Origin: Streptomyces sp. CB02056
GTDB taxonomy: Bacteria; Actinomycetota; Actinomycetes; Streptomycetales; Streptomycetaceae
Assembly: GCF_001905545.1 (NCBI RefSeq)
Contig: NZ_LIPD01000009.1
Location: forward strand, 461,576 to 525,575
Length of the DNA stretch: 64,000 nucleotides
Direction: 5' to 3'
Shown: positions 11,413 to 49,464 of the stretch, in pieces
How the letters are laid out: every line of letters begins with the position of its first letter
Numbering within the stretch: position 1 is the first letter of the stretch
Made by a program: the position numbers and the translations under genes
Notes under the pieces: generated by a model
What the model saw: the letters and a program-made list of their open reading frames with translations, nothing else
Told to the model about the DNA's origin: nothing
Databases searched by the model: none

Positions 11413-11491
11413 GCATTTCCCGCGTTTCCCCATGGTGTTCGATCGCGTCCGACGGCGTCCGGCCGTGCGCGTCGCCCGACGGCGCGCGTCA

Positions 11492-11515
11492 CTTATTAGA
11501 CTCGATGTCGATAAG
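11492..11515 (+). promoter_or_regulatory. AT-rich inverted element and possible -10 before the PF10118-like operon
   Basis: CTTAT at 11492-11496 and ATAAG at 11511-11515 bracket a good -10 hexamer TAGACT (11497-11502), in an otherwise very GC-rich intergenic stretch. No clear -35 was found. A repressor site over a -10 is plausible but unproven. Confidence 0.35.
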
Positions 11516-11601
11516 GGGTGCCGAACCCCTTGTCCCGATGGCTACCCGCGAGTACGTTTCCCTGGAGCCGAGCCGCCGCCCCCAGGTCAGGAGGGCCTGC
11601 C

Positions 11602-12519: not shown

Positions 12520-12566
12520 CGCGGGCGACAGCCCCCTCTCCCCCCTCACCCCAAGGACCCCGCCGG

Positions 12567-14565: not shown

Positions 14566-16316
14566 CGTTCCCGACGAAGCCCCAGGCGCAGGCGAAGCCC
14601 CCGGTCCGCCGCCGGACCGTCCACTCCGGCGGCCTCCCGCTCGCCGTCTTCGAGCAGGGCGACCCGGCCGCCCCCACCGTCCTCCTCGTGCACGGCTACC
14701 CCGACACCCACACCGTCTGGGACGACATCGCCGCCGACCTCGCCCGCGACCACCACGTGGTCCGCTACGACGTGCGCGGCGCCGGGGAGTCGGCCGCCCC
14801 CGCCGACCGGTCCGGCTACCGCCTGGAGCACCTCGCCGAGGACCTGTTCGCCGTCGCCGACGCCGTCAGCCCCGACCGCCCGGTGCACCTGCTCGCCCAC
14901 GACTGGGGCTCGATCCAGTCCTGGGAGGCCGTCACCGCGTCCGGCGCCGAGCGCCGGATCGCCTCGTACACCACCCTGTCCGGCCCCAGCCTGGACCACA
15001 TGGGCCACTGGCTGCGCCACCGGCTGCGCCGCCCCACCCCCCGCCACCTGGGGCAACTGCTCCACCAGGGCCTGCACTCCTGGTACATCACCGCCTTCCA
15101 CCTGCCCTACCTCGCCCCCGGCGTCTGGCGCCTCGGCCTGGCCCGGGCCTGGCCGAGGGTGCTGCGCGACCTGGAGCACGTCACCCCGCGCGCCGACCAC
15201 CCGCAGCCCACCCTGCGCCGCGACGCGGTCCGCGGCATCGAGCTGTACCGGGCCAACTTCCGCCCCACCCTGGGCAGTCCGCGCGAGCGGCCGACCGAGG
15301 TGCCGGTCCAGCTGATCACCCTCACCCGGGACCGGTACGTCGGCACCTACCTCTCCGAGGGGCTGGAGCGCTGGGCGCCGAACCTGACCCGCAGGACGCT
15401 GCACGCCGGCCACTGGTCGGCGCTGCTGGAGAAGGGAGCCACCGTGGCCGGACTGGTCCGCGAGTTCACCACCCGCACCGACGAGGGCCGGGCCCGCCCC
15501 GAGGAGGGCGACGGCCGGCTGGTCGTGGTCACCGGCGGCGGCAGCGGCATCGGCCGGGCGACCGCGCTCGCCTTCGCCGAGGACGGCGCCCGGGTGGTGG
15601 TCTGCGACCTCGACCTCGCGGCCGCCGAGCGCACCGCCGAACTGGCCTCGCTGATCGGCCCGCAGGCGCACGCCTACCGGGTGGACGTCTCCGACGGCGC
15701 CGCGGTGGACGCCTTCGCGCAGACCGTCGCGGCCGAGCACGGGGTGCCCGACGTCATGGTCAACAACGCGGGCATCGGCCACTCCGGGACGTTCCTGCAG
15801 ACCACCGAGAAGGAGTGGCAGCGGGTCCTGGACGTCAACCTCTGGGGCGTGATCCACGGCTGCCGCGCCTTCGGCACCCTGATGGCCGACCGCGGCCAGG
15901 GCGGCCACATCGTCAACGTCTCCTCCGCCGCCGCCTACCTGCCGTCCAAGGCGCTCACCGCCTACGCCACCAGCAAGGCCGCGGTGTTCATGCTCTCCGA
16001 CTGCCTGCGCGCCGAGTTCGTCGGCCACGGCATCGGCGTCTCCACCATCTGCCCCGGCATCGTCAACACCAACATCACCCGCACCTCCACCTTCTCCGCC
16101 ACCACCTCCACCGAGCAGGCCGCCAAGCAGGCCCGCGCCGCGAAGCTCTACGCCCGCCGCGGCTTCCCCCCGGAGAAGGTCGCCACCGCCATCGTGACCG
16201 CCGTCCGCACCGGCAGGCCCGTCGTCCCCGTCACCCCCGAGGCCAAGGCCGCCCGCTTCCTCTCCCGCCTCAGCCCCGGCCTGCTGCGCCTCGCCGCCCG
16301 CCTCAACATCACCTGA
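14562..16316 (+). CDS. Alpha/beta-hydrolase fused to a short-chain dehydrogenase
   Basis: 584 residues in two catalytic halves. Residues 15-305 form an epoxide-hydrolase-like alpha/beta fold with oxyanion HGYP (44-47), nucleophile Asp114 in AHDWGS and His284 in AGHW. Residues 318-584 form an SDR with TGGGSGIG (325-332), NNAG (401-404), Ser454/455, and the YxxxK pair Tyr468/Lys472. Both active sites look intact, so the protein may open a ring or ester and then oxidise the alcohol. ATG at 14562 overlaps the M24 stop by 4 nt. Last gene of the four-gene operon. Confidence 0.92.
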   Translation: MTFPTKPQAQAKPPVRRRTVHSGGLPLAVFEQGDPAAPTVLLVHGYPDTHTVWDDIAADLARDHHVVRYDVRGAGESAAPADRSGYRLEHLAEDLFAVADAVSPDRPVHLLAHDWGSIQSWEAVTASGAERRIASYTTLSGPSLDHMGHWLRHRLRRPTPRHLGQLLHQGLHSWYITAFHLPYLAPGVWRLGLARAWPRVLRDLEHVTPRADHPQPTLRRDAVRGIELYRANFRPTLGSPRERPTEVPVQLITLTRDRYVGTYLSEGLERWAPNLTRRTLHAGHWSALLEKGATVAGLVREFTTRTDEGRARPEEGDGRLVVVTGGGSGIGRATALAFAEDGARVVVCDLDLAAAERTAELASLIGPQAHAYRVDVSDGAAVDAFAQTVAAEHGVPDVMVNNAGIGHSGTFLQTTEKEWQRVLDVNLWGVIHGCRAFGTLMADRGQGGHIVNVSSAAAYLPSKALTAYATSKAAVFMLSDCLRAEFVGHGIGVSTICPGIVNTNITRTSTFSATTSTEQAAKQARAAKLYARRGFPPEKVATAIVTAVRTGRPVVPVTPEAKAARFLSRLSPGLLRLAARLNIT

Positions 16317-34153: not shown

Positions 34154-34209
34154 TCCGTATGCCCGACTGCATGTCCGTCCGCACCGAACCACCGGGAAGG
34201 CCGCCCGCC

Positions 34210-35013
34210 GTGACCGTCCGCATCGCCACCTGGAACATCAACTCCGTCACCGCGCGGCTGCCCAAGCTCCTGGAGTGGCTGGAGAGCGCCAAGCCCGACG
34301 TGCTCTGCCTCCAGGAGCTCAAGTGCGCGGCCGACGCCTTCCCGTACGAGGCGGTCCGCGAGCTCGGCTACGAGACGGCCGCGCACGGCAACGGCCGCTG
34401 GAACGGCGTCGCGATCGTCTCCCGGATCGGCCTGGACGACGTCGTGCGCGGCCTCCCCGACCAGCCCGGCTACTTCGCCGACGGCGCCCTGCTGCCCGAG
34501 GTCGAGCCGCGCGCCATCGCCGCCACCTGCGGCCCGGTCCGGGTCTGGTCGGTCTACGTGCCGAACGGCCGCGAGGTCGGCCACGCGCACTACCAGTACA
34601 AGCTGGAGTGGCTGGAGGCGCTGCGCAAGGCCGCCACCGAGGACGCCGCCGGCCCCCGCCCGTTCGCCGTCCTCGGGGACTTCAACATCGCCCCGACCGA
34701 CGACGACGTCTTCGACGCCGCCGCCTTCGAGGGCCTCACCCACGTCACCCCGGTCGAGCGCGCCGCACTGGCGGCCCTCGACGGGATCGGCCTCCAGGAC
34801 GTGCTGCCCCGCCCGCTCAAGTACGACCACCCGTACACCTACTGGGACTACCGCCAGCTGGCCTTCCCCAAGAACCGGGGCATGCGGATCGACCTCACCT
34901 ACGCCAACAAGCCCTTCGTCGAGGCCGTCACCGACAGCTACGTGGACCGCGAGGCCCGCAAGGGCAAGGGCACCTCGGACCACGCGCCGGTCGTGGTGGA
35001 CCTCGACCTCTGA
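34210..35013 (+). CDS. xth: Exodeoxyribonuclease III (AP endonuclease)
   Basis: Repairs abasic sites and trims 3' ends. 267 residues of the Xth fold: IATWNINSVTARL (Asn), LCLQELKC (metal Glu), GRWNGVAIVSR, YVPNGREVGH, VLGDFNIAPTDDDVF, MRIDLTYAN and GTSDHAPVVVDLDL (catalytic Asp-His). GTG at 34210 is chosen because the conserved VRIATWNINS starts there and GGAAGG lies at 34195-34200; an upstream ATG adds non-conserved sequence. Monocistronic, between hairpin and intergenic DNA. Confidence 0.95.
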   Translation: MTVRIATWNINSVTARLPKLLEWLESAKPDVLCLQELKCAADAFPYEAVRELGYETAAHGNGRWNGVAIVSRIGLDDVVRGLPDQPGYFADGALLPEVEPRAIAATCGPVRVWSVYVPNGREVGHAHYQYKLEWLEALRKAATEDAAGPRPFAVLGDFNIAPTDDDVFDAAAFEGLTHVTPVERAALAALDGIGLQDVLPRPLKYDHPYTYWDYRQLAFPKNRGMRIDLTYANKPFVEAVTDSYVDREARKGKGTSDHAPVVVDLDL

Positions 35014-35223
35014 GCCGCACCGCGTGAGCGCCACTCCGGGTGAGCGCCACGGGTGAGCCCCGCCGCGGGCGTCACGACGGGTCACGGGTCGTAACCCGAA
35101 CGGTCGTGAGCGCTGGCCGAGCGTGGGGCGCGTCCCTACCGTCGGTGAATGACCGGGTGCAGTTGCTCGACCACGTGGACATGGGAGTCCCCGGCTGCGC
35201 CCGAGAATCCCGGAGGTTCCGGT

Positions 35224-35847
35224 ATGCGCCCCATGCGTACGGCCGCCGCCGCCCTGATCGGCGCGACGGCGCTGACCGGCCTGACGGCCCCCCTCGCATC
35301 CGCCAGGGACGGTTCCGCGTCGGTCAGCCCGTCCCAGGCCGCACCGGGCCAGACCGTGACGGTCACGGTCTCCTGCGAGAAGTCGGACAAGCCCGACGCC
35401 AAGACCATCACCGCCCGCTCCGCCGCCTTCGAGGGAGGGCCGGCGACCCTCACCCTGGGCCCCGACGGCAAGCACAGCGGCTCCGCCCGGCTGGCCGGCC
35501 AGCACGCCGGGGACAGCAAGGTCGACGGCACCTGCCCGGACGGCGGGGCCTTCGCCACCAGCGTCACGGTCACCACCGTGGCCGTGCCCGACAGGGGCGG
35601 TGACAAGGGCGGCGACAAGAACCCCCAGAAGAACCCGGGTCTCGGCGAGTGGGGCGAGGCCGCGGGGGAGTGGGCCGGTTCGCTCGGGCAGTCCGGCGCC
35701 GGCAACCAGCAGGTCGCCCCGCACGGCGCCGTGCAGACCGGCCTCGGCGGTTCGGTCGCGGCGAACCCGGGGGAGCTGGCCGGCGGCCTCGCGCTGGTCG
35801 CGGGCGGTGTCGGCGGATTCTGGCTGCTGCGGAGGCGCGGTGCCTGA
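35224..35847 (+). CDS. Secreted/cell-surface protein with C-terminal membrane anchor, unknown function
   Basis: 207 residues: signal peptide (MRPMRTAAAALIGATALTG..., cut near APLASA), an Ig-like beta domain with SPSQAAPGQTVTVTVSCEKSD and a second Cys about 55 residues on, a Lys/Asp/Gly/Asn-rich linker, then a C-terminal hydrophobic helix (LALVAGGVGGFWLL) and RRRGA. No LPXTG motif, so a membrane rather than sortase anchor is likely. ATG at 35224 has GGAGG at 35212-35216. Similar proteins are common in streptomycetes, function unknown. Confidence 0.8.
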   Translation: MRPMRTAAAALIGATALTGLTAPLASARDGSASVSPSQAAPGQTVTVTVSCEKSDKPDAKTITARSAAFEGGPATLTLGPDGKHSGSARLAGQHAGDSKVDGTCPDGGAFATSVTVTTVAVPDRGGDKGGDKNPQKNPGLGEWGEAAGEWAGSLGQSGAGNQQVAPHGAVQTGLGGSVAANPGELAGGLALVAGGVGGFWLLRRRGA

Positions 35848-35955: not shown

Positions 35956-36675
35956 TCAGGCGGTCCGCGGTTCGGCGTCCTCGCGGTGCAGCTGGTCCTG
36001 GTGGCGGAGGGTGCCGTCGGCCAGCAGGTACTGGGCCAGCACATAGGTCGCCATGATCCAGAACTGATGGCCCGGCAGCTCCCGCCACTTCGCCAGCTGG
36101 GTGGCGATCAGCGTGTCGGAGAGCAGGAACAGCGCCCCGCCCAGCCCGGTCCGCCAGCCCAGCCCGGCCGAGGTGACGGCCGTCGACGCGAGCAGCAGGC
36201 TGTAGCCGGCCACCGGGACGCGCAGGTCCCCGAGGTCCGGCCAGAGCTGCCCGACCAGGGCCACCCAGGCCGTCGCGTACGCGGCCGCGACCACCAGGGC
36301 CCGGCGGCGGTCGGTGAGCGCGCCGCGCTGGACGAACATCGTCACGTAGCAGACGTGCGCCGCCGCGAACGAGCCCATGCCCGCGAGGAACGCGGGGTCG
36401 TTCTTCAGCTGGAGCAGCACGTCGCCGCCCGCGCTCAGCAGCAGCGCTGGCGCCAGCAGCTTCGGCGCCTCCCGCCCGGCCTTCGCGGCCGCCGCCACGC
36501 TGTGCGCGGCCAGCAGCGGCATCAGGGCCGGCTTGGTGGCGTTCTGGAGCACCGAGGCGCCGGAGGCGATCGCGCCCAGGTGCGCCGCCGAGGTGGCCGC
36601 GAAGCCGCCCAGCAGGCCGGTGGCCGAGCGCAGGCGTGCCCCGAGGCCGACGCGGGTGGTGGTACGGACGGTCAT
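35956..36675 (-). CDS. YhhN-family membrane protein (lysoplasmalogenase-like)
   Basis: 239 residues with about eight membrane helices. YhhN/TMEM86-family marks are NATKPALMPLLAAH early, LLLSAGGDVLLQL, GMGSFAAAHVCYVTMF and LFLLSDTLIATQL, which carry the conserved Lys, Asp, His and Asp. Relatives cleave vinyl-ether lysophospholipids; activity in this organism is inferred only. ATG at 36675 is the first start before the first conserved segment. The same frame stays open for kilobases upstream, which is a GC-skew artefact. Confidence 0.87.
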   Translation of the reverse strand: MTVRTTTRVGLGARLRSATGLLGGFAATSAAHLGAIASGASVLQNATKPALMPLLAAHSVAAAAKAGREAPKLLAPALLLSAGGDVLLQLKNDPAFLAGMGSFAAAHVCYVTMFVQRGALTDRRRALVVAAAYATAWVALVGQLWPDLGDLRVPVAGYSLLLASTAVTSAGLGWRTGLGGALFLLSDTLIATQLAKWRELPGHQFWIMATYVLAQYLLADGTLRHQDQLHREDAEPRTA

Positions 36676-36900
36676 GCGTGCGCCTCTCGGTGATCCGCTG
36701 CTTCGGACCGACCCTAGAGGAGCCGGACCGGCGGTGGAAGGGTCGGTTACCGGTGCGTAACCCGGGCGGGGTGCGGCGGATGACGGGGTGGCCGGTGAGC
36801 GGAGCGCGGGCGGCCGCTTCGAGGGCTCTTGCGGAGAGTTCCTCAGGAGGGCGGTTGCTGCGGTCGGGTGGCCCGGGCACCGTCTAGTCTGGACCCCGAC

Positions 36901-38661
36901 ATGGATCAGCAGGACTACGCGGTCGGCGCCACCCGGGTGGCCGCCGGCAGGCCGGACGGACGCACGGGCGGGGCAGGGCGGGGAACCGCCGCCGCCGTCC
37001 TCGCCGTACGCGAAGCCGGTCCCGAGGCTGGTCCCGACGCCGGTGGTGCCTCCGGTTCCGACGCGGGCCGCTCCTCCGGTCCCGCTGACAGGGCGCCGGG
37101 GGCGGCCATGGGGAGCGGTGCTGACGGCCCGCAGGCGTCGGCCGCTCCGGCCGTCGACACGACGCTCTCGCCCGATCCGGGGCTGCTGCGCCTGGCCCAC
37201 TGGTTCGCCGCCGCCACCCCCGGCACCGCCGACGACCTCTGCACCGCCTCCTTCGGCCTCTACCCCGCCCGCCACCTCGGCACCGCCGCCGAGCCCGCCG
37301 CCGATCCCGGCGTCAGCTGGTGGCACGGCCCCACCGCGCACTTGGCCACGCCCGTACGCCCCCGCGAGGACCGCACCGAGGGCGGACTGCGCCGCGCCCG
37401 GCGCGACGACGCCGCCCTGCCCGTCGTCCGGTCGGGGGCCAAGACGGGCCGGCCGGGCCGGCACCGCAGGCCCGAACGCACGCGGGTGGCACCGCCCACC
37501 GTCGTGGCGCAGGATCGTTCCGGCGAGGAGCTCCCGGCGGCCGAACGCCGGATCGCCGCCCGGCTGTTGCTCGCCCACCCGCTGGTCACCGCCTCCGGCC
37601 CGCACGCCGACGGCTTTCCGCTGATCCGCCGTCACCGCGACTGGCTCGCCGAGCGCTTCGACACCCTGCTCGGCTACCGCCTCGTGGTCGGCCCCTGGCA
37701 CGCCCGGCTCTGCAAGGCCGGCCTGGGCCCCGGCGCCGCGCGCCGCCTCGAACACCCCGTCACCGGCACTCCGTTCACCCCGGCCGGGTACGCCCAACTC
37801 GCCCTCGCGCTCGCCCTGTTGGTCGACGCCCCGGAGGAGCTCGGCTACCGGCGGCTGCTCGACGCGATGAACGCCGCCGCCCCCGAACTCACCGCCGAAC
37901 CGACCGACCTCGCCATGGCGCTGGCCGCGCTGGCCGGCTGGCAGGTGCTCGGCGAGCTGCCGGCCGAGGGCCCGGCCGACGACTCCTTCGTGCTGACCGT
38001 GGACCGCGAACTCGCCCGGGCCGTCCCGGCCGGCCCGCCCGCCCTCGCCGACGACGCCGCCGACCTGATCCGCCGCGCCGCCGAGGCCGAGCCCGCCACC
38101 GCCGTCCGCCGCCTGCTCGCCGAGACGCCCGCCGTCCTGGCCGCCGACCTCCCCGAGGACCACCGCGCCTGGCTGGAAGAGCACCGGCTCAGCGGACCGG
38201 CGGCGCTCGCCGAGTTCCTCGGACTGGAGGCCGAACTGCGGGCCGAGGGCGTCGCGCTGCTCGACCCGGCCGCCGAACTCACCGACCTCGCCCTCCCCGG
38301 CGGGGGCACCCTCACCCAGGCCGCCCTGCTGCTGGTCGAGCGCCTGGTCGAGGAGGTCCGCCCGCTGCCCGACGAGCCGGTGGCCGGCGACGTCCCGATC
38401 CCGGACGCGCTGATAGACGGCGTCCTCGGCGACATCGCGGACGAGTTCGGTCTCCCCGCCCGCTACCTCGCCGACCGCACCGCCCTGCGGCGGGACGCCC
38501 TCGACGTGCTCCACCGCCTCGCCCTGATCACCCCCACCCCCCATCCCACCCGCCCCCCGGCCTGGCGCCTGCGCCCCCCGGCCGCGCGCTACGCCCCGGC
38601 CCCCGACCTCCACCCCACGCCCGGCACCGGCCGCCACTCCCGCCCCGGACAGTCGGCGTAG
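36901..38661 (+). CDS. JetA-fragment/JetB fusion: DUF2397 remnant joined to TIGR02678 (DUF2398)
   Basis: 586 residues. Residues about 213-490 match the TIGR02678/DUF2398 pattern (JetB of type II Wadjet): ERRIAARLLLAHPLVTASG, FPLIRRHRDWLAERFDTLLGY, HARLCKAGLG, a helical block and LTQAALLLVERLVEEV. Residues about 93-145 (LLRLAHWFAAA, ASFGLYPARHL, SWWHGP) instead resemble the C-proximal part of DUF2397 (JetA). The first 90 residues are low-complexity. No JetC (SMC ATPase) or JetD (nuclease) adjoins. No ribosome site precedes the ATG; TAGTCT at 36885-36890 suggests leaderless expression. Assignment is from remembered family patterns, so moderate. Confidence 0.65.
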   Translation: MDQQDYAVGATRVAAGRPDGRTGGAGRGTAAAVLAVREAGPEAGPDAGGASGSDAGRSSGPADRAPGAAMGSGADGPQASAAPAVDTTLSPDPGLLRLAHWFAAATPGTADDLCTASFGLYPARHLGTAAEPAADPGVSWWHGPTAHLATPVRPREDRTEGGLRRARRDDAALPVVRSGAKTGRPGRHRRPERTRVAPPTVVAQDRSGEELPAAERRIAARLLLAHPLVTASGPHADGFPLIRRHRDWLAERFDTLLGYRLVVGPWHARLCKAGLGPGAARRLEHPVTGTPFTPAGYAQLALALALLVDAPEELGYRRLLDAMNAAAPELTAEPTDLAMALAALAGWQVLGELPAEGPADDSFVLTVDRELARAVPAGPPALADDAADLIRRAAEAEPATAVRRLLAETPAVLAADLPEDHRAWLEEHRLSGPAALAEFLGLEAELRAEGVALLDPAAELTDLALPGGGTLTQAALLLVERLVEEVRPLPDEPVAGDVPIPDALIDGVLGDIADEFGLPARYLADRTALRRDALDVLHRLALITPTPHPTRPPAWRLRPPAARYAPAPDLHPTPGTGRHSRPGQSA

Positions 38662-38792
38662 CGGACAGCCGGCGTAGCGGACCGCCGCCGTGGCGGCGGC
38701 GCCCACCGCGCCGCCCCGGCTCCTCCGCCGGTGAGCGGAAAGCAAGAAGCACCGGGCCCGGAACGGGACCGCGGTGCTGGGTGGAGCAGAGG

Positions 38793-38972
38793 CTACTTGC
38801 TGGCGGAGGCGCTCGCGAGGGGGCCGTGTTCGACGGTTTCCACGGTGGCGCCGACGCCCAGGGTGCCGAGGGCGATGGAGGTGAGTACGGCGGTGACGGC
38901 GAGCAGCCGGCGGTGCCGTTGGGGCAGGGGGAAGCGCGGTTCCTGGTAGGGCGCCTGAGGGCTGGCGTTCAT
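38793..38972 (-). CDS. Small single-helix membrane protein, unknown
   Basis: 59 residues: a Pro/Arg-rich cytoplasmic start (MNASPQAPYQEPRFPLPQRHRR), one hydrophobic helix (LLAVTAVLTSIALGTLGVG) and a short Ser/Ala-rich outer tail. No ribosome site is obvious upstream of ATG at 38972. It lies downstream of the BCCT transporter in the same direction (120 nt gap) and may be transcribed with it. Could equally be a non-annotated chance frame. Confidence 0.5.
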   Translation of the reverse strand: MNASPQAPYQEPRFPLPQRHRRLLAVTAVLTSIALGTLGVGATVETVEHGPLASASASK

Positions 38973-39092
38973 GACAGGGAGGTTTCCAGGGCGGCGTGAA
39001 CGGTCGGTACGTGCGGGTGAAGTCCGGACGGGGGTTGGGCGTCGGTTGGCCGCGTACGCCCCACCCGTCACCGGGCGGGACGTACGCGCAGG

Positions 39093-40724
39093 TCAGCGGC
39101 GTGTGCCCGACTCGCCGACGACCTCCCGGACGGCGTCCCGCAGGCCGTGCGGAGGGTGGAAGCGGGCGGGGGCGGCGGCCGGGTCCTCGCGGAGCTCCTT
39201 CACCAGCGAGACGCACAGCAGCAGCATCACGACCACGAACGGCAGCGCGACCAGGATCGTCGCGTTCTGGAGCGCGGTGAGCCCGCCGGCCAGCAGCAGG
39301 GCCGCCGCGACCCCGCCCATCAGCACGCCCCAGACCACCACCAGCCAGGTGCGCGGGTGCAGCGAGCCCCGGCTGGAGAGGGAGCCCAGCACCAGCGAGG
39401 CCGAGTCGGCGCTGGTGATGAAGAAGGTCATCACCAGCAGCACCGCGACCACGCTGGTCACCGAGCCGAGCGGCAGCGCGCGCAGCATCTCGAACAGCGA
39501 GGCCTCCGGGCCCTGCGGGATGGTCGCGACCAGGTCGGCCGCGCCGGTGGTGGACAGCCGAATCGCGGTGCCGCCCATCACGCAGAACCAGATGACCGTC
39601 GCCCCGCTGGGCACCAGCAGCACGCCGAGCAGGAACTGCCGGATGGTGCGGCCGCGCGAGATCCGCGCGATGAAGGTGCCGACGAAGGGCGCCCAGGAGA
39701 GCCACCAGGCCCAGTAGAAGATCGTCCAGGAGCCGAGCCAGCTCTCGTCGGTGAAGGCGCCGGTCTGGGTGGACATCCCGAGCAGGTCGGAGAGGTAGCC
39801 GCCGACCGAGGAGGGGATCGCGTCCAGGGCGAACACCGTCGGGCCGACCACGAAGACGAAGACCATGATCAGCGAGGCCAGCACGACGTTCGCCGTGGAG
39901 AGCCACTTCACGCCCTTGTGCACCCCGGAGAACGCGGAGACCACGAACGCGGCCGTCAGCGAGCCGATGATGATCAGCTGGGCGTTCTGGGTGTTGCGGA
40001 CGGAGGTGATGTAGCCGAGCCCGTCGGCGACCTGGAGCGCGCCGAGGCCGAGGCTGGTCGCGGAGCCGAAGACGGTGGCGAACACGGCCAGCAGGTCGAT
40101 CGTCCGCCCGGCCCAGCCGTCCGCGCCGCGCTGGCCGATCAGTGGGACGAAGGCGGCGGAGACCCGGTTGCCCCGGCCCTTGCGGAAGGTGGTGTAGGCG
40201 AGGGCCAGGCCGCCGACCGCGTAGATCGCCCACGGGTGCAGGGTCCAGTGGAAGAGCGAGAACTCCAGGGCCTGCTGGGCGGCGGCCGCGCTCTGCGGCT
40301 CCAGGCCGGAGCCCGGCTGTGGGGTGGCGAAGAGCTGGAGCGGCTCGCCGACGCCGTAGAACATCAGGCCGATGCCCATCCCGGCGCTGAACATCATGGC
40401 GATCCAGGCGAGGGTGGAGAACTCGGGCTCGTCGTCGTCGCGGCCGAGCCGGATCCGGCCGAAGCGGCTGAACGCGAGCAGCACGCTGAGCGCCAGGAAG
40501 ACGTCGGCGGCCACCACGAACAGCCAGCCGAAGTTGTGCAGCACCCAGCCGAGCGCGGTGTCGGAGGTGCGGCCGAGCGAGTCCTCGGCGAAGACGCCCC
40601 AGGCGACCACCGCCAGGACCAGGACGGCGCCGATGCCGAACACCGCCCGGTCGGCCGGAAGGGTCGCGGCGGGTTCGTCGGGCTCCTCCACGGGCTGGTC
40701 GGACTGGGGCGGCTGGCTGCTCAT
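39093..40724 (-). CDS. BCCT-family glycine betaine/choline/carnitine transporter
   Basis: Sodium- or proton-coupled uptake of osmoprotectant betaines. 543 residues, 12 membrane helices. Family marks: SAGMGIGLMFYGVGEP (the glycine-rich TM3 segment), FHWTLHPWAIYA, FTDESWLGSWTIFYWAWWLSWAPFVGTFIARISRGRTIR (betaine-box Trp cluster), and FITSADSASLVLG. ATG at 40724 starts a short acidic/Pro N-terminus; the C-terminal tail (about 35 residues) is shorter than in osmosensing BetP. Adjacent minus-strand MerR gene ends 134 nt upstream. Confidence 0.95.
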   Translation of the reverse strand: MSSQPPQSDQPVEEPDEPAATLPADRAVFGIGAVLVLAVVAWGVFAEDSLGRTSDTALGWVLHNFGWLFVVAADVFLALSVLLAFSRFGRIRLGRDDDEPEFSTLAWIAMMFSAGMGIGLMFYGVGEPLQLFATPQPGSGLEPQSAAAAQQALEFSLFHWTLHPWAIYAVGGLALAYTTFRKGRGNRVSAAFVPLIGQRGADGWAGRTIDLLAVFATVFGSATSLGLGALQVADGLGYITSVRNTQNAQLIIIGSLTAAFVVSAFSGVHKGVKWLSTANVVLASLIMVFVFVVGPTVFALDAIPSSVGGYLSDLLGMSTQTGAFTDESWLGSWTIFYWAWWLSWAPFVGTFIARISRGRTIRQFLLGVLLVPSGATVIWFCVMGGTAIRLSTTGAADLVATIPQGPEASLFEMLRALPLGSVTSVVAVLLVMTFFITSADSASLVLGSLSSRGSLHPRTWLVVVWGVLMGGVAAALLLAGGLTALQNATILVALPFVVVMLLLCVSLVKELREDPAAAPARFHPPHGLRDAVREVVGESGTRR

Positions 40725-40858
40725 CGGATGGACCCCTCGACATACTCGGCGTGCGTCGGCACGCTCGGATTCAAGCTGTATGTCGCACTATGTCCAGTCC
40801 GCTCCGTGAGCGGAGGGACGGCGCGCCGGGGAAGCGCGGGGTCGGGACCTACGTCCCG

Positions 40859-41290
40859 TCAGGCCGCCTGCTCCTCGCCGTAGTCGTGCCCGTCGTCGTG
40901 CCGGTGCCCGGGCCCGTGCTGCCGTCCGTGGTCGGGCCCGGAGTCGCGCGCGGTGGCGAGGTAGTGGGAGAGCGCCCGGCGGCTGCGGCTGAGGTCCTCG
41001 ATCCGGGAGTCCAGGTCGGCGAGTTCGCCGCGCAGGATGGCGAGCAGCTCCGGGCAGGCCTCCAGGACGGGGACCGGACCGGTGGCGCAGGGCAGCAGCT
41101 CGGCGATCACCCGGGTGCTCAGACCGGCTGAAAGCAGGCTGCGGATCTGCCACACCCGGACGGTGTCCTCCTCGCCGTACTCGCGGTAGCCGGCCGCCGT
41201 GCGGTCCGGCCGGAGCAGGCCCTGTTCCTCGTAGTAGCGGAGCAGGCGGGTGGACATCCCGGTCAGGCGGGCGAGTTCTCCGATGCGCAT
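40859..41290 (-). CDS. MerR-family transcriptional regulator with His-rich tail
   Basis: 143 residues. N-terminal MerR winged helix MRIGELARLTGMSTRLLRYYEEQGLL, then GYREYGEEDTVRVWQIRSLLSAGLS and a dimerisation helix. The conserved metal-binding cysteines of heavy-metal MerR proteins are not all present (Cys in LPCAT and EACPE). The last 25 residues are His/Asp/Gly-rich (DHGRQHGPGHRHDDGHDYG), which could bind metal. ATG at 41290 fits the conserved MRIGEL start. Upstream lies a degraded stretch rather than an intact target gene. Confidence 0.88.
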   Translation of the reverse strand: MRIGELARLTGMSTRLLRYYEEQGLLRPDRTAAGYREYGEEDTVRVWQIRSLLSAGLSTRVIAELLPCATGPVPVLEACPELLAILRGELADLDSRIEDLSRSRRALSHYLATARDSGPDHGRQHGPGHRHDDGHDYGEEQAA

Positions 41291-41820
41291 GACCGGGCGA
41301 ACGCCGCCGCCTGCCGGGGTGTTCCTCCGGGAGGCTCGGCTCCTGAGGAACTCCGGCAGTACGTCGCGCAGTTCGGGCGGCGCCCCGGCCACCGGCAGGC
41401 GCCCGTTGGGGAGTTCGGCCAGGCGTGTGCCGGGGATCAGCCCGGCCGGCGACCAGGGCGGGGACGGCTGTCGCGGCCGGTTCGGCGCGGACGTCGGTCC
41501 GGGCGGCGGGCCGGAACCGCTGCCGGAAGCCGTCCGGCACCGGGGACTTGGGATGTTCCCGCAGCGGGGCGAGCTCGTCCGGCTGGTCGGCCAGGTCGAT
41601 GAACAGCTCGGAGAGCGTCCGCAACCGGGCCGGGCCCCGGCCACGCCGGCGAGCAGTGGCAGCGAGCGGGCCCGCCCGGGGCGGCGGGTGGCGATCCGGC
41701 CAGATCGAAGGTGTCCGGGCGCCGGCCCCGGCCCCGTGGGCGAGCGGCGGTTCCGGGCCGGGACCCCGGACGATCCGGGCGGGCGGGGTGGCTGACATGG
41801 GGTGCTCCGCTGCGGGGCGG
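41291..41820 (-). pseudogene. Possible frameshifted alpha/beta-hydrolase remnant
   Basis: No intact gene is supported, but pieces on the minus strand read like an alpha/beta hydrolase split over different frames. MSATPPARIVRGPGPEPPLAHGAG has an HGAG-like oxyanion region after a GGAG ribosome site near 41800. LRTLSELFIDLADQPDELAPLREHPKSPVPDGF lies at about 41540-41640. PGTRLAELPNGRLPV...LRDVLPEFLRSR lies at about 41320-41440. Hydrolase genes often adjoin such MerR genes. The evidence is suggestive only; a GC-rich spacer remains possible. Confidence 0.3.
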
Positions 41821-41978
41821 GGTTTCGCCGACACAATGGGAACGGTAGGAGTCCACACCGGTGAGTAGGTCAGACCGGGGAGCGGAAGCCCGTCCAGGAC
41901 GGCCCGCGGGCCCCGGCGGCGGCCGCGGTCGCGCGCGGCGCCGAAACCGACCACGCTGAAACGGAAGGAACGCCGTTC

Positions 41979-43409
41979 ATGGACGACGAGGTCCGCACCC
42001 CGAACGAAGCAGTCCCGACACCGGCCGATCCGACGCCCGCCGACCGGAGGCAGACCGACCGGAGGCAGACCGACCGGAGGCAGATCGATCGGAGGCGGGC
42101 CGAGCCGACGCGGGCCGCCCGGGACGGCGCGCGTGCCGACGGCGTGGACCGCCGGACGCTGCTGCGGGCGGCCTCCGCCGCCGGGGCGCTCGCCGCGCCG
42201 GTCCCGGCCGCGCCGCTGGTCACCGCAGGCCGGGCGGCCGCCGAGGGGGTGTCCGGGCCGGCGTCCGGGGCGGTCTCCGGGGCCTCGTCCGGGCCCGTGC
42301 CCGGGATCGTCAAACCGCTGCCCGCCGAGTGGTTCGTGCCGCACGGCACCAACGCGGAGACGCGCTGGGACACCTTCCGCGGCGCCGACGGCGGCGCCGC
42401 CATCGGCCGCCACGTGCCGGTGGAGCGGTTCTTCGTCCGCAACCACACCAGCACCCCGCTGATCGACCCGGACACCTGGAGCCTCAGGCTCTTCGGCAGC
42501 GGCCTGCGCGGCGCCCCGACGGCCGGGCGCCCGGTCGAGTTCGGCCTGGACGACCTGCGGGAGCTGCCGTCCACCCGGATCAGCGCGCTGATCGAGTGCG
42601 CCGGCAACGGCCGCAGCTACTACTCCGGCCAGCAGGGCCAGCCCGTCCCGGGCACGCCGTGGACACTCGGCGGCGTCGGCTCGGCGAGCTGGCGGGGCGT
42701 CCGGCTGGCCGAGGTGCTGCGGGCCGCCGGGCTGACCGGGGCGGCGGTGGACGTGCTGCCCACCGGCCTGGACCCGGACTTCGTCGCGGGCGGCACCAAC
42801 TACGGCCCGGTGCGCCGCCCGCTGCCGATCGCCAAGGCGCTGGACGACGTGCTGCTCGCGTACGAGATGAACGGCGAGCCGCTGACCCCGGACCACGGCG
42901 CCCCGGCCCGGCTGGTGGTGCCCGGCTGGGTGGGCATCGCCTCCATCAAGTGGGTGGGCAGCGTGGAGGTCGCCGACCACCCGCTGTACTCGCCGTGGAA
43001 CACCGACTTCTACCGGATGTTCGGCCCGGACTACCCGCCCGGCGGGGGCGACCCGCTCACCGTCCAGGTGGTCAAGAGCGCCTTCGAGCTGGCCGCGGGA
43101 GCGCGGCTGGCGGCGGACCGCGAGCACCGGCTGCACGGGCGCTCGTGGTCCGGCGTGGCGGCGGTGCGCCGGGTCGAGGTCAGCACGGACGGCGGCCGGA
43201 CCTGGCGGCGCGCCGAGCTGCGCGACGAGCCGCGGGCCGACGGCTGGACGCGCTGGAGCTTCGACTGGCGCCCCGGGCGGCCCGGCCCGTACGAGCTGCG
43301 CGCCCGCGCGACGGACCGCCGGGGGAACACCCAGCCCGAGCGGGCGCTGTTCAACCGGGAGGGCTACCTGTTCGGTGCCGTGGTGGCCCACCCGGTGACG
43401 GTGGTCTGA
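41979..43409 (+). CDS. Sulfite-oxidase-like molybdopterin enzyme with Tat signal
   Basis: 476 residues. The SUOX-fold core includes VERFFVRNHTSTPLIDP, the molybdenum-ligand Cys207 in SALIECAGNGRSYY, WRGVRLAEVL, GVRRPLPIAKALDD-like loop (VRRPLPIAKALDDVLLAYEMNG), HGAPARLVVPGWVGIASIKWV and a C-terminal dimerisation domain (VRRVEVSTDGGRTW). A twin-arginine motif DRRTLLRAASAAGALAAP starts at residue 57, after an unusual 56-residue leader containing a DRRQT pentapeptide repeat. ATG at 41979. Exported sulfite or related oxidations are likely; the electron acceptor is not encoded nearby. Confidence 0.92.
   Translation: MDDEVRTPNEAVPTPADPTPADRRQTDRRQTDRRQIDRRRAEPTRAARDGARADGVDRRTLLRAASAAGALAAPVPAAPLVTAGRAAAEGVSGPASGAVSGASSGPVPGIVKPLPAEWFVPHGTNAETRWDTFRGADGGAAIGRHVPVERFFVRNHTSTPLIDPDTWSLRLFGSGLRGAPTAGRPVEFGLDDLRELPSTRISALIECAGNGRSYYSGQQGQPVPGTPWTLGGVGSASWRGVRLAEVLRAAGLTGAAVDVLPTGLDPDFVAGGTNYGPVRRPLPIAKALDDVLLAYEMNGEPLTPDHGAPARLVVPGWVGIASIKWVGSVEVADHPLYSPWNTDFYRMFGPDYPPGGGDPLTVQVVKSAFELAAGARLAADREHRLHGRSWSGVAAVRRVEVSTDGGRTWRRAELRDEPRADGWTRWSFDWRPGRPGPYELRARATDRRGNTQPERALFNREGYLFGAVVAHPVTVV
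42041..42100 (+). repeat. Four tandem 15-bp repeats inside the molybdoenzyme leader
   Basis: CGACCGGAGGCAGAC is repeated at 42041-42055 and 42056-42070 exactly, with one change at 42071-42085 and further changes at 42086-42100. In frame it encodes DRRQT, DRRQT, DRRQI, DRRRA, an in-frame expansion ahead of the Tat motif. Confidence 0.9.
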
Positions 43410-43426
43410 GCCGAGCGCCGGTCCGA

Positions 43427-43466
43427 GCCGCGCCAGGAGCCCCGGCGGCGGGGCCCGTGGCGCGGC
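43427..43466. terminator. Bidirectional terminator between molybdoenzyme and TetR genes
   Basis: GCCGCGCCA (43427-43435) pairs with TGGCGCGGC (43458-43466), and an inner GCCCCG/CGGGGC adds to the stem. Located between convergent genes. Confidence 0.65.
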
Positions 43467-43471
43467 GCGGC

Positions 43472-44131
43472 TCAGCCGGTGGACTGGACCTCGTACGGGG
43501 CCGGGTAGCGCGTCTCGTACGGGGTCAGCACCAGCCGCACCACGTCCTCCAGGCGCCGCCGGGCGTCCCCGAGGGTGGTGCGGCCGGTCACCCAGGCGGT
43601 CAGCTCGCCCTGCCAGGCGTGGGCCACGATGTGCCGCACCAGGTCGCTCGCGGCGGCCGGCACCTCGGCCGTCACCGCTTGCAGGGCGGTGCTGTCGGCC
43701 CGGGCCATGCCCTGCAGGGCCTCGCTGGCGAAGGGGTCGGTGGAGGCGGCCACGGCCACCCTTAGCCGGGCGAGTTCGGGCTGCCGCTGGTAGGCCCGCA
43801 TCCCGCCCCGGACGAACCGGACGGCCCGGTCGGTGGCCCCGAGCCCGGCCCTCGGTCCGCGCAGCTCGGCCACCAGGTCGGCCAGCAGCAGGCGGTGCCA
43901 TTCGGCGATCGCCGCAGCCAGGAGGTGGTCCTTGGAGGAGAAGTAGCGGTACGCCGTCCCCAGGGCGACTCCGGACCGCTCGCAGACTTGTTTCATCTGC
44001 ATACGCTCGACGCCGATCTCGTTCACCAGGGCGAGCGCGGCCGCGATCAGGCTTTCGCGGCGTTCGAGCTGACGCGGAGACATCGCCTCCACCGGCCGTG
44101 GTGACAGGTCAACCTTGGTCACCCGCACCAT
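43472..44131 (-). CDS. TetR-family regulator (KstR-like)
   Basis: 219 residues. HTH region: RRESLIAAALALVNEIGVERMQMKQVCERSGVALGTAYRYFSSKDHLLAAAIAEW, which closely follows the KstR-type pattern of lipid-degradation regulators. The C-terminal ligand domain is less conserved. ATG at 44131 gives a 20-residue leader; alternative GTG starts lie a few codons in, with no clear ribosome site. It sits 103 nt downstream of an acyl-CoA thioesterase gene in the same direction, which supports a link to fatty-acid or steroid metabolism (inference). Confidence 0.88.
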   Translation of the reverse strand: MVRVTKVDLSPRPVEAMSPRQLERRESLIAAALALVNEIGVERMQMKQVCERSGVALGTAYRYFSSKDHLLAAAIAEWHRLLLADLVAELRGPRAGLGATDRAVRFVRGGMRAYQRQPELARLRVAVAASTDPFASEALQGMARADSTALQAVTAEVPAAASDLVRHIVAHAWQGELTAWVTGRTTLGDARRRLEDVVRLVLTPYETRYPAPYEVQSTG

Positions 44132-45143: not shown

Positions 45144-45361
45144 GAGGCCATAGTGGCAGAAGCCAACCGTGTGGTGGTGTGACCTGGGTAACGCCGCCCG
45201 CGGGCTCGTGTGATGACATAGAACACGTTCCAGTCCGATCCCCGGCTCTGGCCCCGCGCCCGGCCGGGTCGAGGCCCTCCCGGCGCCCTCGCGAGGCCGC
45301 CCCGAGGCCGCCCCGCGGTCGTCCCGACGGATTGTCAGTGCCCTCACCTAGCGTGCTCGGC

Positions 45362-46747
45362 ATGACGCAATCCGCACACGCGTACGCCTATCTGCGCCCG
45401 TCGGCCGTCCTGGACGGCGCCGACGGCCGGCACCTCGACCTGGCCACCTCCGGCGGCGCCACCCCGCTCGGCGCCGCCGCCAACCCGCGCTTCTTCGCGG
45501 GCTTCCTGGCCGATCCGGCGCCGGCCGCCGCCGCGCTGCTCGCGGTCGCGGACGTCGCCGCCGCGCGCTACTACCAGCCGCGGCTGCGTGCCTCGCTCGA
45601 CCCGGTGGTCACCGCCAACGGGGACCGGCTGCGCTTCGAGTCCTTCTCGGGCTGCTGCGGCGTCTACGCCCGGCTCGATGTGCTCGGGGCCGGGCTCGAC
45701 GGGGACGAGATCGGCCACGGCACCACCAACGTGGACGTCAACAACCCGCTGCGCGAGGCGCTGACCAGGATCGGCCCGGCCGACCCGCTGCACCTCGCGG
45801 TCGGGCCGGACGCGCTGGAGGTCACCACCTTCGACGGCTCGCTGGTCGAGAAGAAGGTGCCGCTGCCGGAGCGCTGGCTGCGCGGCTTCGCCGAGACCCA
45901 GGTGGTCGCCGCCGGTTTCGAACCGCGCGCCGAGCTGCCCGCCGCCGAGGCGGTGCGGTTCCTGCGCTCGCTGCCGCGCGGCGGGCGGGCCGGCGTCGGC
46001 TGGGTCGTCCCGGCCGGGAAGACGCTGCGGCCGACCACCCGGCCGGTGCCCGGCGCGGTCTGCCTGCCCGGGCCCGACCGGCTGGTGGCGCTCCAGCGGG
46101 TGCTGCGGCACGCGCTCGCCCTGCGGGTCTACGGGCCGGTCGCGGCCGGGGAGCCGACCGCCTCCGCCTGGGAGGCGGTGCTGCCCGGCATGCGGCTGAC
46201 CCTGACGCTGTCGCCCGACGCCGCCCGGGGCTTCTCCGGCGAGGGCGGGGTGCTGGACGCGCTCGCCACCGGCACGGCCGAACAGGACGCCGAACTGATC
46301 GCGGTGCTGCTCGCCTGGGAGCCCCGGATCGAGGTCGGGGACCTCGCCGCCCAGTCCGGGCTGAGCCCCGAGCGGGTCCGCGCCGCGCTCACCCGGCTGG
46401 GCACCGCCGGGCAGATCGGCTACGACACCGCCGAGGCCGCGTACTTCCACCGGCAGCTCCCGTACGACGCCGGGCGGGCCGAGGCGGCCAACCCCCGGCT
46501 GCGGGCCGCCCGGGCACTGGTCGAGGCGGGCGCCGTACGGCTGGAGGAGGGCGGGGCGACGGCCGTCGTCACGGTGGACGAGCACATCCAGCGGGTGCGG
46601 ACGGACGAGTCGGGGCGGCTGAGCTGCACCTGCCTGTGGTGGGGCAAGTACCGGGGCGGACGCGGGCCGTGCAAGCACGCGCTCGCGGTCGGCATGGTAC
46701 GGGAGACGGCCGCCGGGGCGGCGGGGACGAAGGGGGCCGGAGCGTGA
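45362..46747 (+). CDS. SWIM zinc-finger protein
   Basis: 461 residues. The C-terminal SWIM finger is complete: Cys422, Cys424, Cys437 and His439 (CxC-x12-CxH), preceded by RVRTDESGRLS. The middle contains a winged-helix-like piece (LAAQSGLSPERVRAALTRLGTAGQIGYD). SWIM fingers bind DNA or proteins. ATG at 45362 is chosen because the conserved-looking YAYLRPSAVL starts there; it has no ribosome site but TAGCGT lies 7 nt upstream. The next gene overlaps by 4 nt, so the two work together. A SWIM protein (YehQ) also sits beside MoxR/vWA genes in the E. coli yeh cluster, but no such genes are here. Confidence 0.9.
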   Translation: MTQSAHAYAYLRPSAVLDGADGRHLDLATSGGATPLGAAANPRFFAGFLADPAPAAAALLAVADVAAARYYQPRLRASLDPVVTANGDRLRFESFSGCCGVYARLDVLGAGLDGDEIGHGTTNVDVNNPLREALTRIGPADPLHLAVGPDALEVTTFDGSLVEKKVPLPERWLRGFAETQVVAAGFEPRAELPAAEAVRFLRSLPRGGRAGVGWVVPAGKTLRPTTRPVPGAVCLPGPDRLVALQRVLRHALALRVYGPVAAGEPTASAWEAVLPGMRLTLTLSPDAARGFSGEGGVLDALATGTAEQDAELIAVLLAWEPRIEVGDLAAQSGLSPERVRAALTRLGTAGQIGYDTAEAAYFHRQLPYDAGRAEAANPRLRAARALVEAGAVRLEEGGATAVVTVDEHIQRVRTDESGRLSCTCLWWGKYRGGRGPCKHALAVGMVRETAAGAAGTKGAGA

Positions 46748-49464
46748 GCACGGTGGAGGGGGCCGACCGGCAGGGGCCGGTCGACGAGCTGCTGACGACC
46801 GTCCGGTCCGGGCGGCTGGCACGGATACCGGAGCTGCTGGCCGGGCTGGACGCGGCCCAGCGGCGGGCCGCCCTGACCGCGCTCAAGGCGCTGCGCAAGG
46901 AGCTGCGCGAGGAGTGGTCCCGGGAGGCGACCGAGACCAGGGGACGCCTGCTGGTGGCCGGGGCCGGCTGCCACTCCGGCCCGGCCGCCGCCGCCACCTG
47001 GCTGGCCGGCAGCGACTTCGGCGTCCGCGACTGGGCCCGGAACTCCGTGCTGCACCAGGTCGTCGAGGCGCAGCCGGTGGAGTGGCAGGTCGAGGTGGTC
47101 GCCCGGCTCGCCGTCCGGCCGGTGCGCAACCAGGGCTGGTCGATGTACCCGGTGATGGAGGCCGTGGTCCGGCGCACCGGCTGCGAGGTGCCGCGCGGCG
47201 AGACCTTCGTCCGGGGCTGGACGGACCGCGTGAGCGACTTCGGCAGCCGCGGCGCGCGTCCCACGCTGGCCGAGAAGCTGCGCCAGGACGCCTTCACCCC
47301 GGTGCTGCTGCCCGAGCTGCTCGAACTCGCGGACATCGGCTGGCAGCTGACGTACCGGCACAGCCCGCGCCCCGGCGACGTCTGGACCGAGGCGATCGGC
47401 GAACTGGCCGCGGCCGGCCTGGTCGACCGGGCCGAGCTGCTCGACCGCTGCCTGGCCCGGCTGCTGCGCGGCGGCAAGCCGGCCGACCAGCGGGCCCTCC
47501 TGGAGGTGCTGCGGGCGCTCGGCCCGACACCGGCCGAGTACGCGGCCCGGGTGCGCGACCTGGTGGCGCTGCTGGACGGCCAGTCGGTGCTCGCCGGGCA
47601 CGCCCAGGAGGTGCTCGCCGGGCTGGACGAGGCCGGCCTGATCGAGCCCGAGGTGCTCGCCGAGGCCTCGGCGGTGGTGCTGTTCCGGACCGAGAAGAAG
47701 CTGGTCCGCGCCCAGCTGGCCTGGCTGGACAAGGCCGCCCGGCGCGCGCCCGGGCGCTCCGGCCCGGTGGTGCTGGCCGCGGCCGAGGCCTTCGGGCACC
47801 CCGACGCGGCCCTCCAGGAACGGGCGCTGAACGTGGTGGCCCGGCACCTGAAGGCGGCGGGGGAGGCGGTGGTGGCGGAGCTGCGGACCGCCGCCGAGGG
47901 GCTGAACCCGGCCCACCACCTGCGCGCGGGCGACCTGCTCGGCGCGCCGGTCGGCGGCGACGGGGACGACCCGGACACCGGGTGGAACGCCTTCCTCCCG
48001 CCGGCCCCCGAACCGCGCCCGCTCGGCGCCCCGATCGGCTCGGCGGTGGAACTCGCGGAGGAGCTGTCCGCCCTGCTCGCCTCGGAGGAGCCCGCCGTGG
48101 CGGACTTCGAGCGGGTGCTGGACGGGCTGGTCCGGCTCACCCGCCTGGACCGGAGGGCGCTGGCCGAGGCGGTGGAGCCGGTCCGCCGGGTGCACCCGTG
48201 GCGCGGCACCAACAGCGTGGGCGACTGCACGCCCCGGGAGATCCTCTACGTGGTGGCCGCGGTGGCCGGGGAGACGCCGCCGTGGAAGGTCTGGGACTAC
48301 CTCGGCCGCAAGGGCCGCTCCGTGCTGCGCGGAGCGCACACCACCGTGCACGGGGCCGTCCTCGCCGCCCGCCTGGAGGAGGCCGCCTGGCAGGTCCACC
48401 ACGCCGGGCTGCCGTACCTGCTCGCCACCCCGACCGACGCCACCGGCGCACTGGACGCGGCCGAACTGGTCGAGCGGCTCGCCGGGTACGAGGCGGCGGG
48501 CGTCAAGCCGGGGAAGGCCGACCTGTCCCAGGCCCTGCTGCGGGTCGACGTGCGGGCCCAGGAGGCGGTGCTGAAGGCCGCCGAGGCGCTCACCTCCCCG
48601 GCCGGGCGGTGGCTGGCGCACTGGCTGCGCACCGGAGGCCTGCCCGGGCAGCCCTCCGAGCGGGTGGTGTTCGCGCCCGGCAAGGGGGTGCGGCACACCA
48701 ACGTGCACGGGGACCGCTGGTGGGAGGAGGTCGAGCGGATCGCCGTCGCCCAGCCGGGCATCGGCGCCGGACCGAAGGGGCCGGGCGGCGAGCGGCTCCC
48801 GGCCGAGCCGCGGGCCCTGCTGGACGGCACCGAGCCCAGCGTCGCCCGGGCCCGCACGGTGTACGGCTGGACGTGGCGGCCCGTCGCGCACTGGTTCGCG
48901 ATGCTCCCCTGGCACCGGGAGGAGCTGGCCGCGCGCTGGCTCGACCCCTTCGCCGGGGGCGCCGACCAGGACGAGCGCGGCGCCGCCCGCTACCTCCCGC
49001 TGCTCGCCGAGGCCGGCGGCCCGGCCGGGCTCGCGCTGCACCTCGCGCTGGCGTACGGCCTGGGCTCCCGGCACGCCGAGGACCGGACGGCGGCGGTGGA
49101 CGCCCTGCTGGTGCTCGCCGCGCGCGGCGAGCTGGACGGCGCGCTGCTCGGCCGCGAGCTCGGCGCCCTGGTGGCCTGCGGCACGGTGATGGGCGGCCGG
49201 CTGGGGGCGGCGCTCACCACGGCGGCGGAGACCGGTGCCCGGGCGACGGTCTGGTCGGTGCTCGGGGCGGCCCTGCCGGGCCTGCTGGGCGAGGCCGACC
49301 AGTCGGCGCGCGGGCTGGGCGACCTGATCGCGCTGGCCACCGACTGCGCCCGGCGCACCGGGGCCCGCGGGCCGGTCGCCGAGGTGACGGCGGCGGCCGA
49401 ACGCGGAGGCTCGGGCCGGGTGGTCAAGGAGGCCCGGGCGCTGCGGGACGTCCTCGCGGGCTGA
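46744..49464 (+). CDS. Large helical-repeat protein, DUF6493-like, partner of the SWIM protein
   Basis: 906 residues, almost entirely alpha-helical and Ala/Leu/Arg-rich, with HEAT-like helix pairs (LAAAGLVDRAELLDRCLARLL, ALLEVLRALGPTPAEYAARV, ALQERALNVVARHLKAAGEAV). The opening segment VDELLTTVRSGRLARIPELLAGLDAAQRRAAL resembles the DUF6493 start. No enzyme motif found. GTG at 46744 overlaps the SWIM stop (GTGA). The two form a fixed pair in this genome; function unknown, perhaps a DNA-linked scaffold or conflict system. The gene ends 28 nt before a perfect palindrome. Confidence 0.88.
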   Translation: MSTVEGADRQGPVDELLTTVRSGRLARIPELLAGLDAAQRRAALTALKALRKELREEWSREATETRGRLLVAGAGCHSGPAAAATWLAGSDFGVRDWARNSVLHQVVEAQPVEWQVEVVARLAVRPVRNQGWSMYPVMEAVVRRTGCEVPRGETFVRGWTDRVSDFGSRGARPTLAEKLRQDAFTPVLLPELLELADIGWQLTYRHSPRPGDVWTEAIGELAAAGLVDRAELLDRCLARLLRGGKPADQRALLEVLRALGPTPAEYAARVRDLVALLDGQSVLAGHAQEVLAGLDEAGLIEPEVLAEASAVVLFRTEKKLVRAQLAWLDKAARRAPGRSGPVVLAAAEAFGHPDAALQERALNVVARHLKAAGEAVVAELRTAAEGLNPAHHLRAGDLLGAPVGGDGDDPDTGWNAFLPPAPEPRPLGAPIGSAVELAEELSALLASEEPAVADFERVLDGLVRLTRLDRRALAEAVEPVRRVHPWRGTNSVGDCTPREILYVVAAVAGETPPWKVWDYLGRKGRSVLRGAHTTVHGAVLAARLEEAAWQVHHAGLPYLLATPTDATGALDAAELVERLAGYEAAGVKPGKADLSQALLRVDVRAQEAVLKAAEALTSPAGRWLAHWLRTGGLPGQPSERVVFAPGKGVRHTNVHGDRWWEEVERIAVAQPGIGAGPKGPGGERLPAEPRALLDGTEPSVARARTVYGWTWRPVAHWFAMLPWHREELAARWLDPFAGGADQDERGAARYLPLLAEAGGPAGLALHLALAYGLGSRHAEDRTAAVDALLVLAARGELDGALLGRELGALVACGTVMGGRLGAALTTAAETGARATVWSVLGAALPGLLGEADQSARGLGDLIALATDCARRTGARGPVAEVTAAAERGGSGRVVKEARALRDVLAG

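What the first reader, a model, noticed from the sequence alone, without database searches (positions are those of the whole stretch)
36901..38661. Orphan JetA-fragment/JetB fusion, possible Wadjet relic or repurposed protein
Residues about 213-490 follow the TIGR02678/DUF2398 (JetB) pattern and residues about 93-145 follow the tail of DUF2397 (JetA), in one open frame. Normal type II Wadjet systems have separate JetA, JetB, JetC and JetD genes. Here the JetA N-terminal winged-helix part, the SMC ATPase and the nuclease are all absent, yet the frame is intact over 586 codons with normal codon bias. Either a collapsed anti-plasmid locus is being retained for another task, or it works with components elsewhere.
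Basis: partly seen in the sequence, partly recalled or inferred. Interest (0 to 1): 0.75.

Follow-up and report, generated by a model that had tools for sequence, protein, structure and literature searches.

The report
Conserved leftover of an anti-plasmid system
A gene made from two fused pieces of a collapsed anti-plasmid machine (Wadjet) sits at the same chromosomal spot in every Kitasatospora genome examined, without the motor and the DNA-cutting enzyme that the machine needs, which suggests that bacteria kept a scrap of a defence system for another, still unknown, job.

Summary
ORF 36901-38661 (+, 586 aa) is a complete JetB/KITE domain (PF09661, E 2.6e-56) preceded by a short JetA/kleisin piece (PF09660 positions 303-384 of 483, E 3.4e-10). 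That piece is the middle of JetA, not its tail. It is not an isolated relic: a profile match was found in all 70 genomes of the genus searched. The fused frame is intact in 64 of 68 readable Kitasatospora genomes and 3 of 3 of a sister genus, at one syntenic place, with a conserved -10-like box before the ATG. The domains are under purifying selection; the linkers are not. Full JetC occurs in only 26 of 70 genomes, so the fusion does not depend on Wadjet, although the window's own genome holds two complete, distant Wadjet operons elsewhere. All fusions form one clade; their parent is a Wadjet II subtype with ~50% identical JetB. A third genus carries a frameshifted JetA-JetB-JetC operon beside the same xthA gene: the decaying ancestral state. 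Best reading: a domesticated, motor-less kleisin-linker-KITE protein. Its molecular task is unknown; SMC-independent binding or regulation is most likely. AlphaFold models were too poor to use.

The parts
36901..38661 (+). JetA-fragment/JetB fusion gene, 586 aa
   Evidence: orthologues, alignment A1; profile match in 70/70 genomes of the genus
36885..36890 (+). TAGTCT, -10-like box 10 nt before the ATG (leaderless-type promoter)
   Evidence: same box and spacing in nearly all clade-A orthologues (TAGTCT/TAGGCT), many clade-B ones, and TAGGCT/TACGCT before ATG in the sister genus; promoter function inferred
36901..36990 (+). conserved N-terminal motif MDQQ(D/E)YAVGATRV..GR.DGR.GGAG
   Evidence: related MEQHEYATG / MERHEAAAG in other clades
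37183..37416 (+). JetA (kleisin) fragment, model positions 303-384 of PF09660, with the SWWHGP block
   Evidence: SWWHG in frame in 67 of 71 proteins
37387..37485 (+). basic segment RRARR...GRPGRHRRPE (net +9 in 33 residues), partly JetA-derived
   Evidence: pN/pS 0.33 against 0.83-0.93 in the linkers of the same gene
37558..38598 (+). complete JetB (KITE) domain
   Evidence: PF09661 1-362; similarity to solved JetB 9qe0_D, E 2.4e-19 with the A2 profile
37780..38001 (+). winged helix 1 of JetB; largely deleted in one clade of orthologues
   Evidence: secondary structure of the locally confident part; deletions in clade B
38392..38589 (+). winged helix 2 of JetB
   Evidence: secondary structure; conserved columns
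35956..36675 (-). YhhN-family gene, divergent neighbour (syntenic anchor)
   Evidence: Pfam; synteny
34159..35013 (+). xthA-like exonuclease III family gene (syntenic anchor; also beside the broken Wadjet of G012)
39093..40724 (-). BCCT transporter, downstream neighbour; no functional link suggested

Best explanation
The gene is the surviving, re-used part of a type II Wadjet operon that stood downstream of xthA in an ancestor of Kitasatospora and its sister genera. The operon lost JetC, JetD and most of JetA. The middle segment of JetA (the kleisin stretch just before the C-terminal winged helix) became joined in frame to a whole JetB, and the product has been inherited vertically and kept by selection. 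Shown: the composition, single origin, synteny, decaying relative, selection, conserved start box, and persistence without JetC. Inferred: by homology with kleisin-KITE pairs, the kleisin segment folds onto its own KITE domain in cis, giving a self-contained KITE-kleisin unit without motor or nuclease. It would therefore act not by loop extrusion or cutting but as a binding protein (scaffold, nucleoid-associated or regulatory), perhaps helped by the conserved basic segment.
For: Domains. Orthologues: an A1-profile match in 70/70 genomes; fused frame intact in 64/68 Kitasatospora with a readable locus and 3/3 sister-genus genomes. Same place between YhhN and its neighbours. One clade, 99/94. 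Closest full Wadjets have 50-53% identical JetB. Broken JetA (two frames), JetB (frameshift) and JetC (three frames) beside xthA in G012. JetC over cut-off in only 26/70. pN/pS 0.21-0.38 in the domains against 0.83-0.93 in linkers of the same gene (other clades 0.30-0.62). Conserved -10-like box at fixed distance. 72 JetB columns are at least 90% the same in fusions and Wadjets. MksE-MksF (KITE-kleisin) is the strongest pair measured in the C. glutamicum complex (PMC10123090).
Against: No function was tested. AlphaFold models are too poor (mean pLDDT 48) to show that the kleisin piece packs on the KITE, and Foldseek gave nothing significant. No solved coordinates could be inspected to prove that this JetA segment is the JetB-binding one. 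The protein is acidic overall (net -15), so DNA binding is not evident, and in a type I JetABC-DNA structure the KITE does not touch DNA (PMC10586767). Constraint is weaker in the deepest clade (0.54-0.62). In four genomes the kleisin part is broken or lost, and in clade B winged helix 1 is largely deleted.
Confidence: 0.6

Rival explanations
1. It modulates Wadjet in trans: as a spare or competing KITE/kleisin piece it blocks or tunes resident or incoming (plasmid-borne) Wadjet complexes.
For: 26 of 70 genomes, the window's own included, have a JetC over the cut-off. Five genomes carry a Wadjet of the parental subtype beside an intact fusion. The parental subtype also occurs on Streptomyces plasmids.
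Against: 44 of 70 genomes have no JetC over the cut-off and still keep the fusion; breakage of the fusion is not linked to JetC (1 of 4 broken against 25 of 64 intact, p=1). The window's own Wadjets have JetBs only 29-30% identical. The parts that bridge SMC heads (both kleisin winged helices) are missing.
Confidence: 0.2
2. A slowly decaying relic without a function.
For: Four of 68 readable genomes have lost or frameshifted the kleisin part. Winged helix 1 is largely deleted in clade B. Constraint is modest in clade C. A related genus shows plain decay.
Against: The fused frame is open in 64 of 68 Kitasatospora plus the sister genus, with the SWWHG block invariant. Domains are constrained and linkers are not, in the same genes. 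The start box and its spacing are kept.
Confidence: 0.12
3. It serves another SMC complex (for example the housekeeping SMC-ScpA-ScpB) as an additional KITE.
For: KITE proteins work with kleisins, and Wadjet-group members without the nuclease took on chromosome roles (MukBEF; MksBEF) (PMC10586767, PMC7617805).
Against: The KITE is probably already occupied by its own kleisin segment (inferred). No SMC-head-binding part remains, and no SMC gene is nearby. Partner binding could not be tested here.
Confidence: 0.08

Closest known systems
Type II Wadjet (JetABCD), parental subtype such as G120:C14 / G033:C1 / G001:C37
   Same: JetB about 50-53% identical over its length for G120, G033 and G153 (A2); the JetA middle block SWWxGP is shared
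   Different: No JetC, no JetD, no JetA N- or C-terminal domains, JetA and JetB pieces fused in one gene, fixed chromosomal place
JetB/MksE/MukE KITE proteins (PF09661)
   Same: Full-length domain; profile match to solved JetB 9qe0_D
   Different: 69 columns near-invariant in the parental JetBs are relaxed in the fusions, concentrated around winged helix 1 and 414-438; winged helix 1 is largely deleted in one clade
MukBEF / MksBEF (Wadjet-group complexes without nuclease)
   Same: Precedent for a Wadjet-group complex leaving plasmid defence (PMC10586767, PMC7617805)
   Different: They keep the SMC motor and a full kleisin; here neither remains

Membership tests
Type II Wadjet system | JetB (PF09661/TIGR02678) | tested here: met
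   PF09661 E 2.6e-56, full length; TIGR02678 75.3 bits, under its cut-off of 124.65
Type II Wadjet system | JetA kleisin with N- and C-terminal parts | tested here: not met
   only model positions 303-384 of 483
Type II Wadjet system | JetC SMC ATPase in the operon | tested here: not met
   not among the neighbouring ORFs searched; nearest copies on other contigs
Type II Wadjet system | JetD nuclease in the operon | tested here: not met
   not among the neighbouring ORFs searched
Type II Wadjet system | restriction of circular plasmids | not testable with these tools
   needs an experiment
KITE proteins (JetB/MukE type) | sequence homology over the tandem winged-helix domain | tested here: met
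KITE proteins (JetB/MukE type) | tandem winged-helix fold | tested here: inconclusive
   secondary structure fits two winged helices (294-367, 498-557) but model confidence is low and no fold match is significant
KITE proteins (JetB/MukE type) | binds a kleisin | not testable with these tools
   inferred only from the fused kleisin segment
Kleisin (JetA/MukF) | N-terminal and C-terminal winged-helix domains bridging SMC heads | tested here: not met
   both missing

The most novel reading that the evidence does not exclude
A kleisin-linker-KITE fusion that works with no SMC motor: part of a plasmid-defence machine turned into a core chromosomal gene of Kitasatospora with a housekeeping or developmental role.
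Probability: 0.45. Interest if true: 0.72.

Novelty: new variant of a known kind. Interest (0 to 1): 0.52.

Why it matters
KITE and kleisin subunits are known as accessories of SMC motors. A pair that persists across a genus with neither motor nor nuclease would show that these subunits can have a task of their own. The locus series (full Wadjet, decaying operon, fused remnant, eroded fusion) also gives a readable case of defence-gene exaptation. Because the gene is single, syntenic and conserved, a deletion in a laboratory Kitasatospora strain would test it directly. It also warns that lone JetB or JetA hits in defence surveys are not evidence of a defence system.

Tried and rejected
AlphaFold2 on the full protein and on residues 89-570 with 15 sequences: mean pLDDT 48.5 and 48.0, not usable for packing; Foldseek against the PDB gave no significant match. 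More diverse sequences for the alignment were sought in viral contigs: none. A Wadjet operon around the window: no JetC or JetD among the neighbouring ORFs. The 1595-aa antisense ORF 35956-40743 is a spurious frame around YhhN. The 1037-aa ORF 40788-43901 has the wrong codon-position GC and is spurious; the molybdopterin oxidoreductase 41979-43406 on the + strand is the gene. A start at TTG 36829 was rejected because conservation and the -10-like box place the start at ATG 36901. A sequencing error or assembly join as the cause of the fusion is rejected by the many orthologues. Phage and plasmid origin: no phage hit; plasmid hits are only ordinary separate JetA/JetB genes. No paper found names these families or links Wadjet with Kitasatospora. 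A match spanning both parts in one frame was not clearly seen outside Kitasatospora and genus g12 in samples of 298 family and 395 class genomes.

Full report
Observation. ORF 36901-38661 (+) encodes 586 aa. Pfam DUF2398 (JetB) matches end to end (model 1-362 of 363, E 2.6e-56), and DUF2397 (JetA) matches only positions 303-384 of 483 (E 3.4e-10). NCBIfam gives TIGR02678 and TIGR02677 below their cut-offs, and PADLOC gives JetB2 and JetA2. Codon-position GC supports the frame from about 37050 on. The JetA piece is the stretch before the C-terminal winged helix: fusion LLRLAHWF...FGLYPARHLG...SWWHGP against JetA LLRLAAWF...FGLYGARHLG...SWWSGP. Both ends of JetA are missing.

Genome. The window is G000:C34:461576-525575. 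The same genome holds two complete Wadjet operons, on C2 and C3 (JetA, JetB, JetC; JetD; the C3 JetD resembles type I models best). Their JetBs are only 29-30% identical to the fusion, so neither is its parent or obvious partner.

Distribution. Named orthologues, all Kitasatospora or Streptomyces by record title, came from one scan; fifteen sequences including the window's align over the whole length (A1). A profile of A1 finds a match in 70 of 70 genomes of the genus. I could read the locus in 68 of them, because two are cut by contig ends. In 64 of the 68, and in 3 of 3 genomes of genus g12, the kleisin SWWHG block and JetB lie in one frame. Of the four exceptions, G045 and G181 have a frameshift between the two parts, and G081 and G205 have lost or scrambled the kleisin part. 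JetC over the TIGR02680 cut-off is present in only 26 of 70, and fusion breakage is unrelated to JetC (p=1). In samples of 298 family and 395 class genomes no clear match spanning both parts was seen outside these two genera.

Synteny and ancestry. In the Kitasatospora loci the fusion lies in the same neighbourhood: ROK, gamma-glutamyltranspeptidase, xthA-like nuclease, YhhN on the other strand, fusion, then usually BCCT and TetR. Two of three g12 genomes also have YhhN beside it. Genome G012 (genus g13) has, downstream of the xthA gene on the same strand, a broken Wadjet operon: JetA in two frames, JetB frameshifted near its end, JetC in three frames with its ends missing. In a tree of JetB domains the 71 fusions form one clade (99/94); the nearest rows are the G012 remnant (86/38, long branch) and the full Wadjet of G001 (92/98), within a Wadjet II subtype of Streptomyces and Kitasatospora. 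That subtype's JetB is 50-53% identical to the fusion, and relatives lie on Streptomyces plasmids as separate genes. So an operon collapsed at this place and left the fusion.

Selection. In clade A mean pN/pS is 0.21-0.38 in the JetA fragment, basic segment and JetB, but 0.83-0.93 in the linkers of the same genes, an internal near-neutral control. In other clades the domains show 0.30-0.62; the deepest clade is the least constrained. Extreme GC at third positions makes absolute ratios unreliable, but the contrast within the gene stands. A TAGTCT/TAGGCT box 10 nt before the ATG recurs across clades and before the g12 starts, which suggests a leaderless transcript (inference).

Anatomy. 72 JetB columns are at least 90% identical in both fusions and parental Wadjets, while 69 columns near-invariant in the Wadjets are relaxed in the fusions, many around winged helix 1; clade B has deletions through winged helix 1. 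A new N-terminal motif (M[DE]QQ[DE]YA...) and a basic segment (net +9 in 33 residues) are conserved.

Mechanism. Kleisin and KITE are the tightest pair measured in the C. [quoted passage not shown] In MukF, the middle domain and C-terminal winged helix bind the SMC neck and cap (PMC7617805); the fusion lacks the corresponding end domains. I infer that the retained piece occupies the KITE in cis, leaving a motor-less binding module. This could not be shown: AlphaFold models had mean pLDDT 48, the PDB fold search was empty of significant matches, and only sequence comparison links JetB to a solved structure (9qe0_D, E 2.4e-19). DNA binding is not evident from charge (net -15).

Verdict. Origin and retention are well supported (about 0.9 in my judgement); the molecular task is open. 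Novelty: a new variant of a known kind.

Noticed in passing
L108 (G012:C1:1205000-1224500), 6043-12932, - strand: Decaying type II Wadjet operon (JetA in two frames, JetB frameshifted, JetC in three frames) beside an xthA gene orthologous to window 34159-35013.
   Followed up: partly
L101, L102, L114, L132 and related loci (clade B fusions): About two dozen orthologues have lost most of JetB winged helix 1 but keep the kleisin block and winged helix 2; many of the proteins are only 460-500 aa long.
   Followed up: partly
L112 (G000:C3), 13703-14977: The nuclease of the second Wadjet operon matches JetD type I models best although its JetC is clearly type II: a mixed operon or a divergent JetD.
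   Followed up: no
L119 (G205), L117 (G081), L123 (G181), L137 (G045): Fusion genes with the kleisin part lost or frameshifted; possibly real losses, possibly sequencing errors.
   Followed up: partly
window 45179-49464: SWIM zinc-finger protein followed by a large protein with DUF7824/DUF7825, conserved in Kitasatospora; function unknown.
   Followed up: no
window 35149-35847: ORF of 232 aa without Pfam match, between xthA and YhhN, conserved in much of the genus.
   Followed up: no
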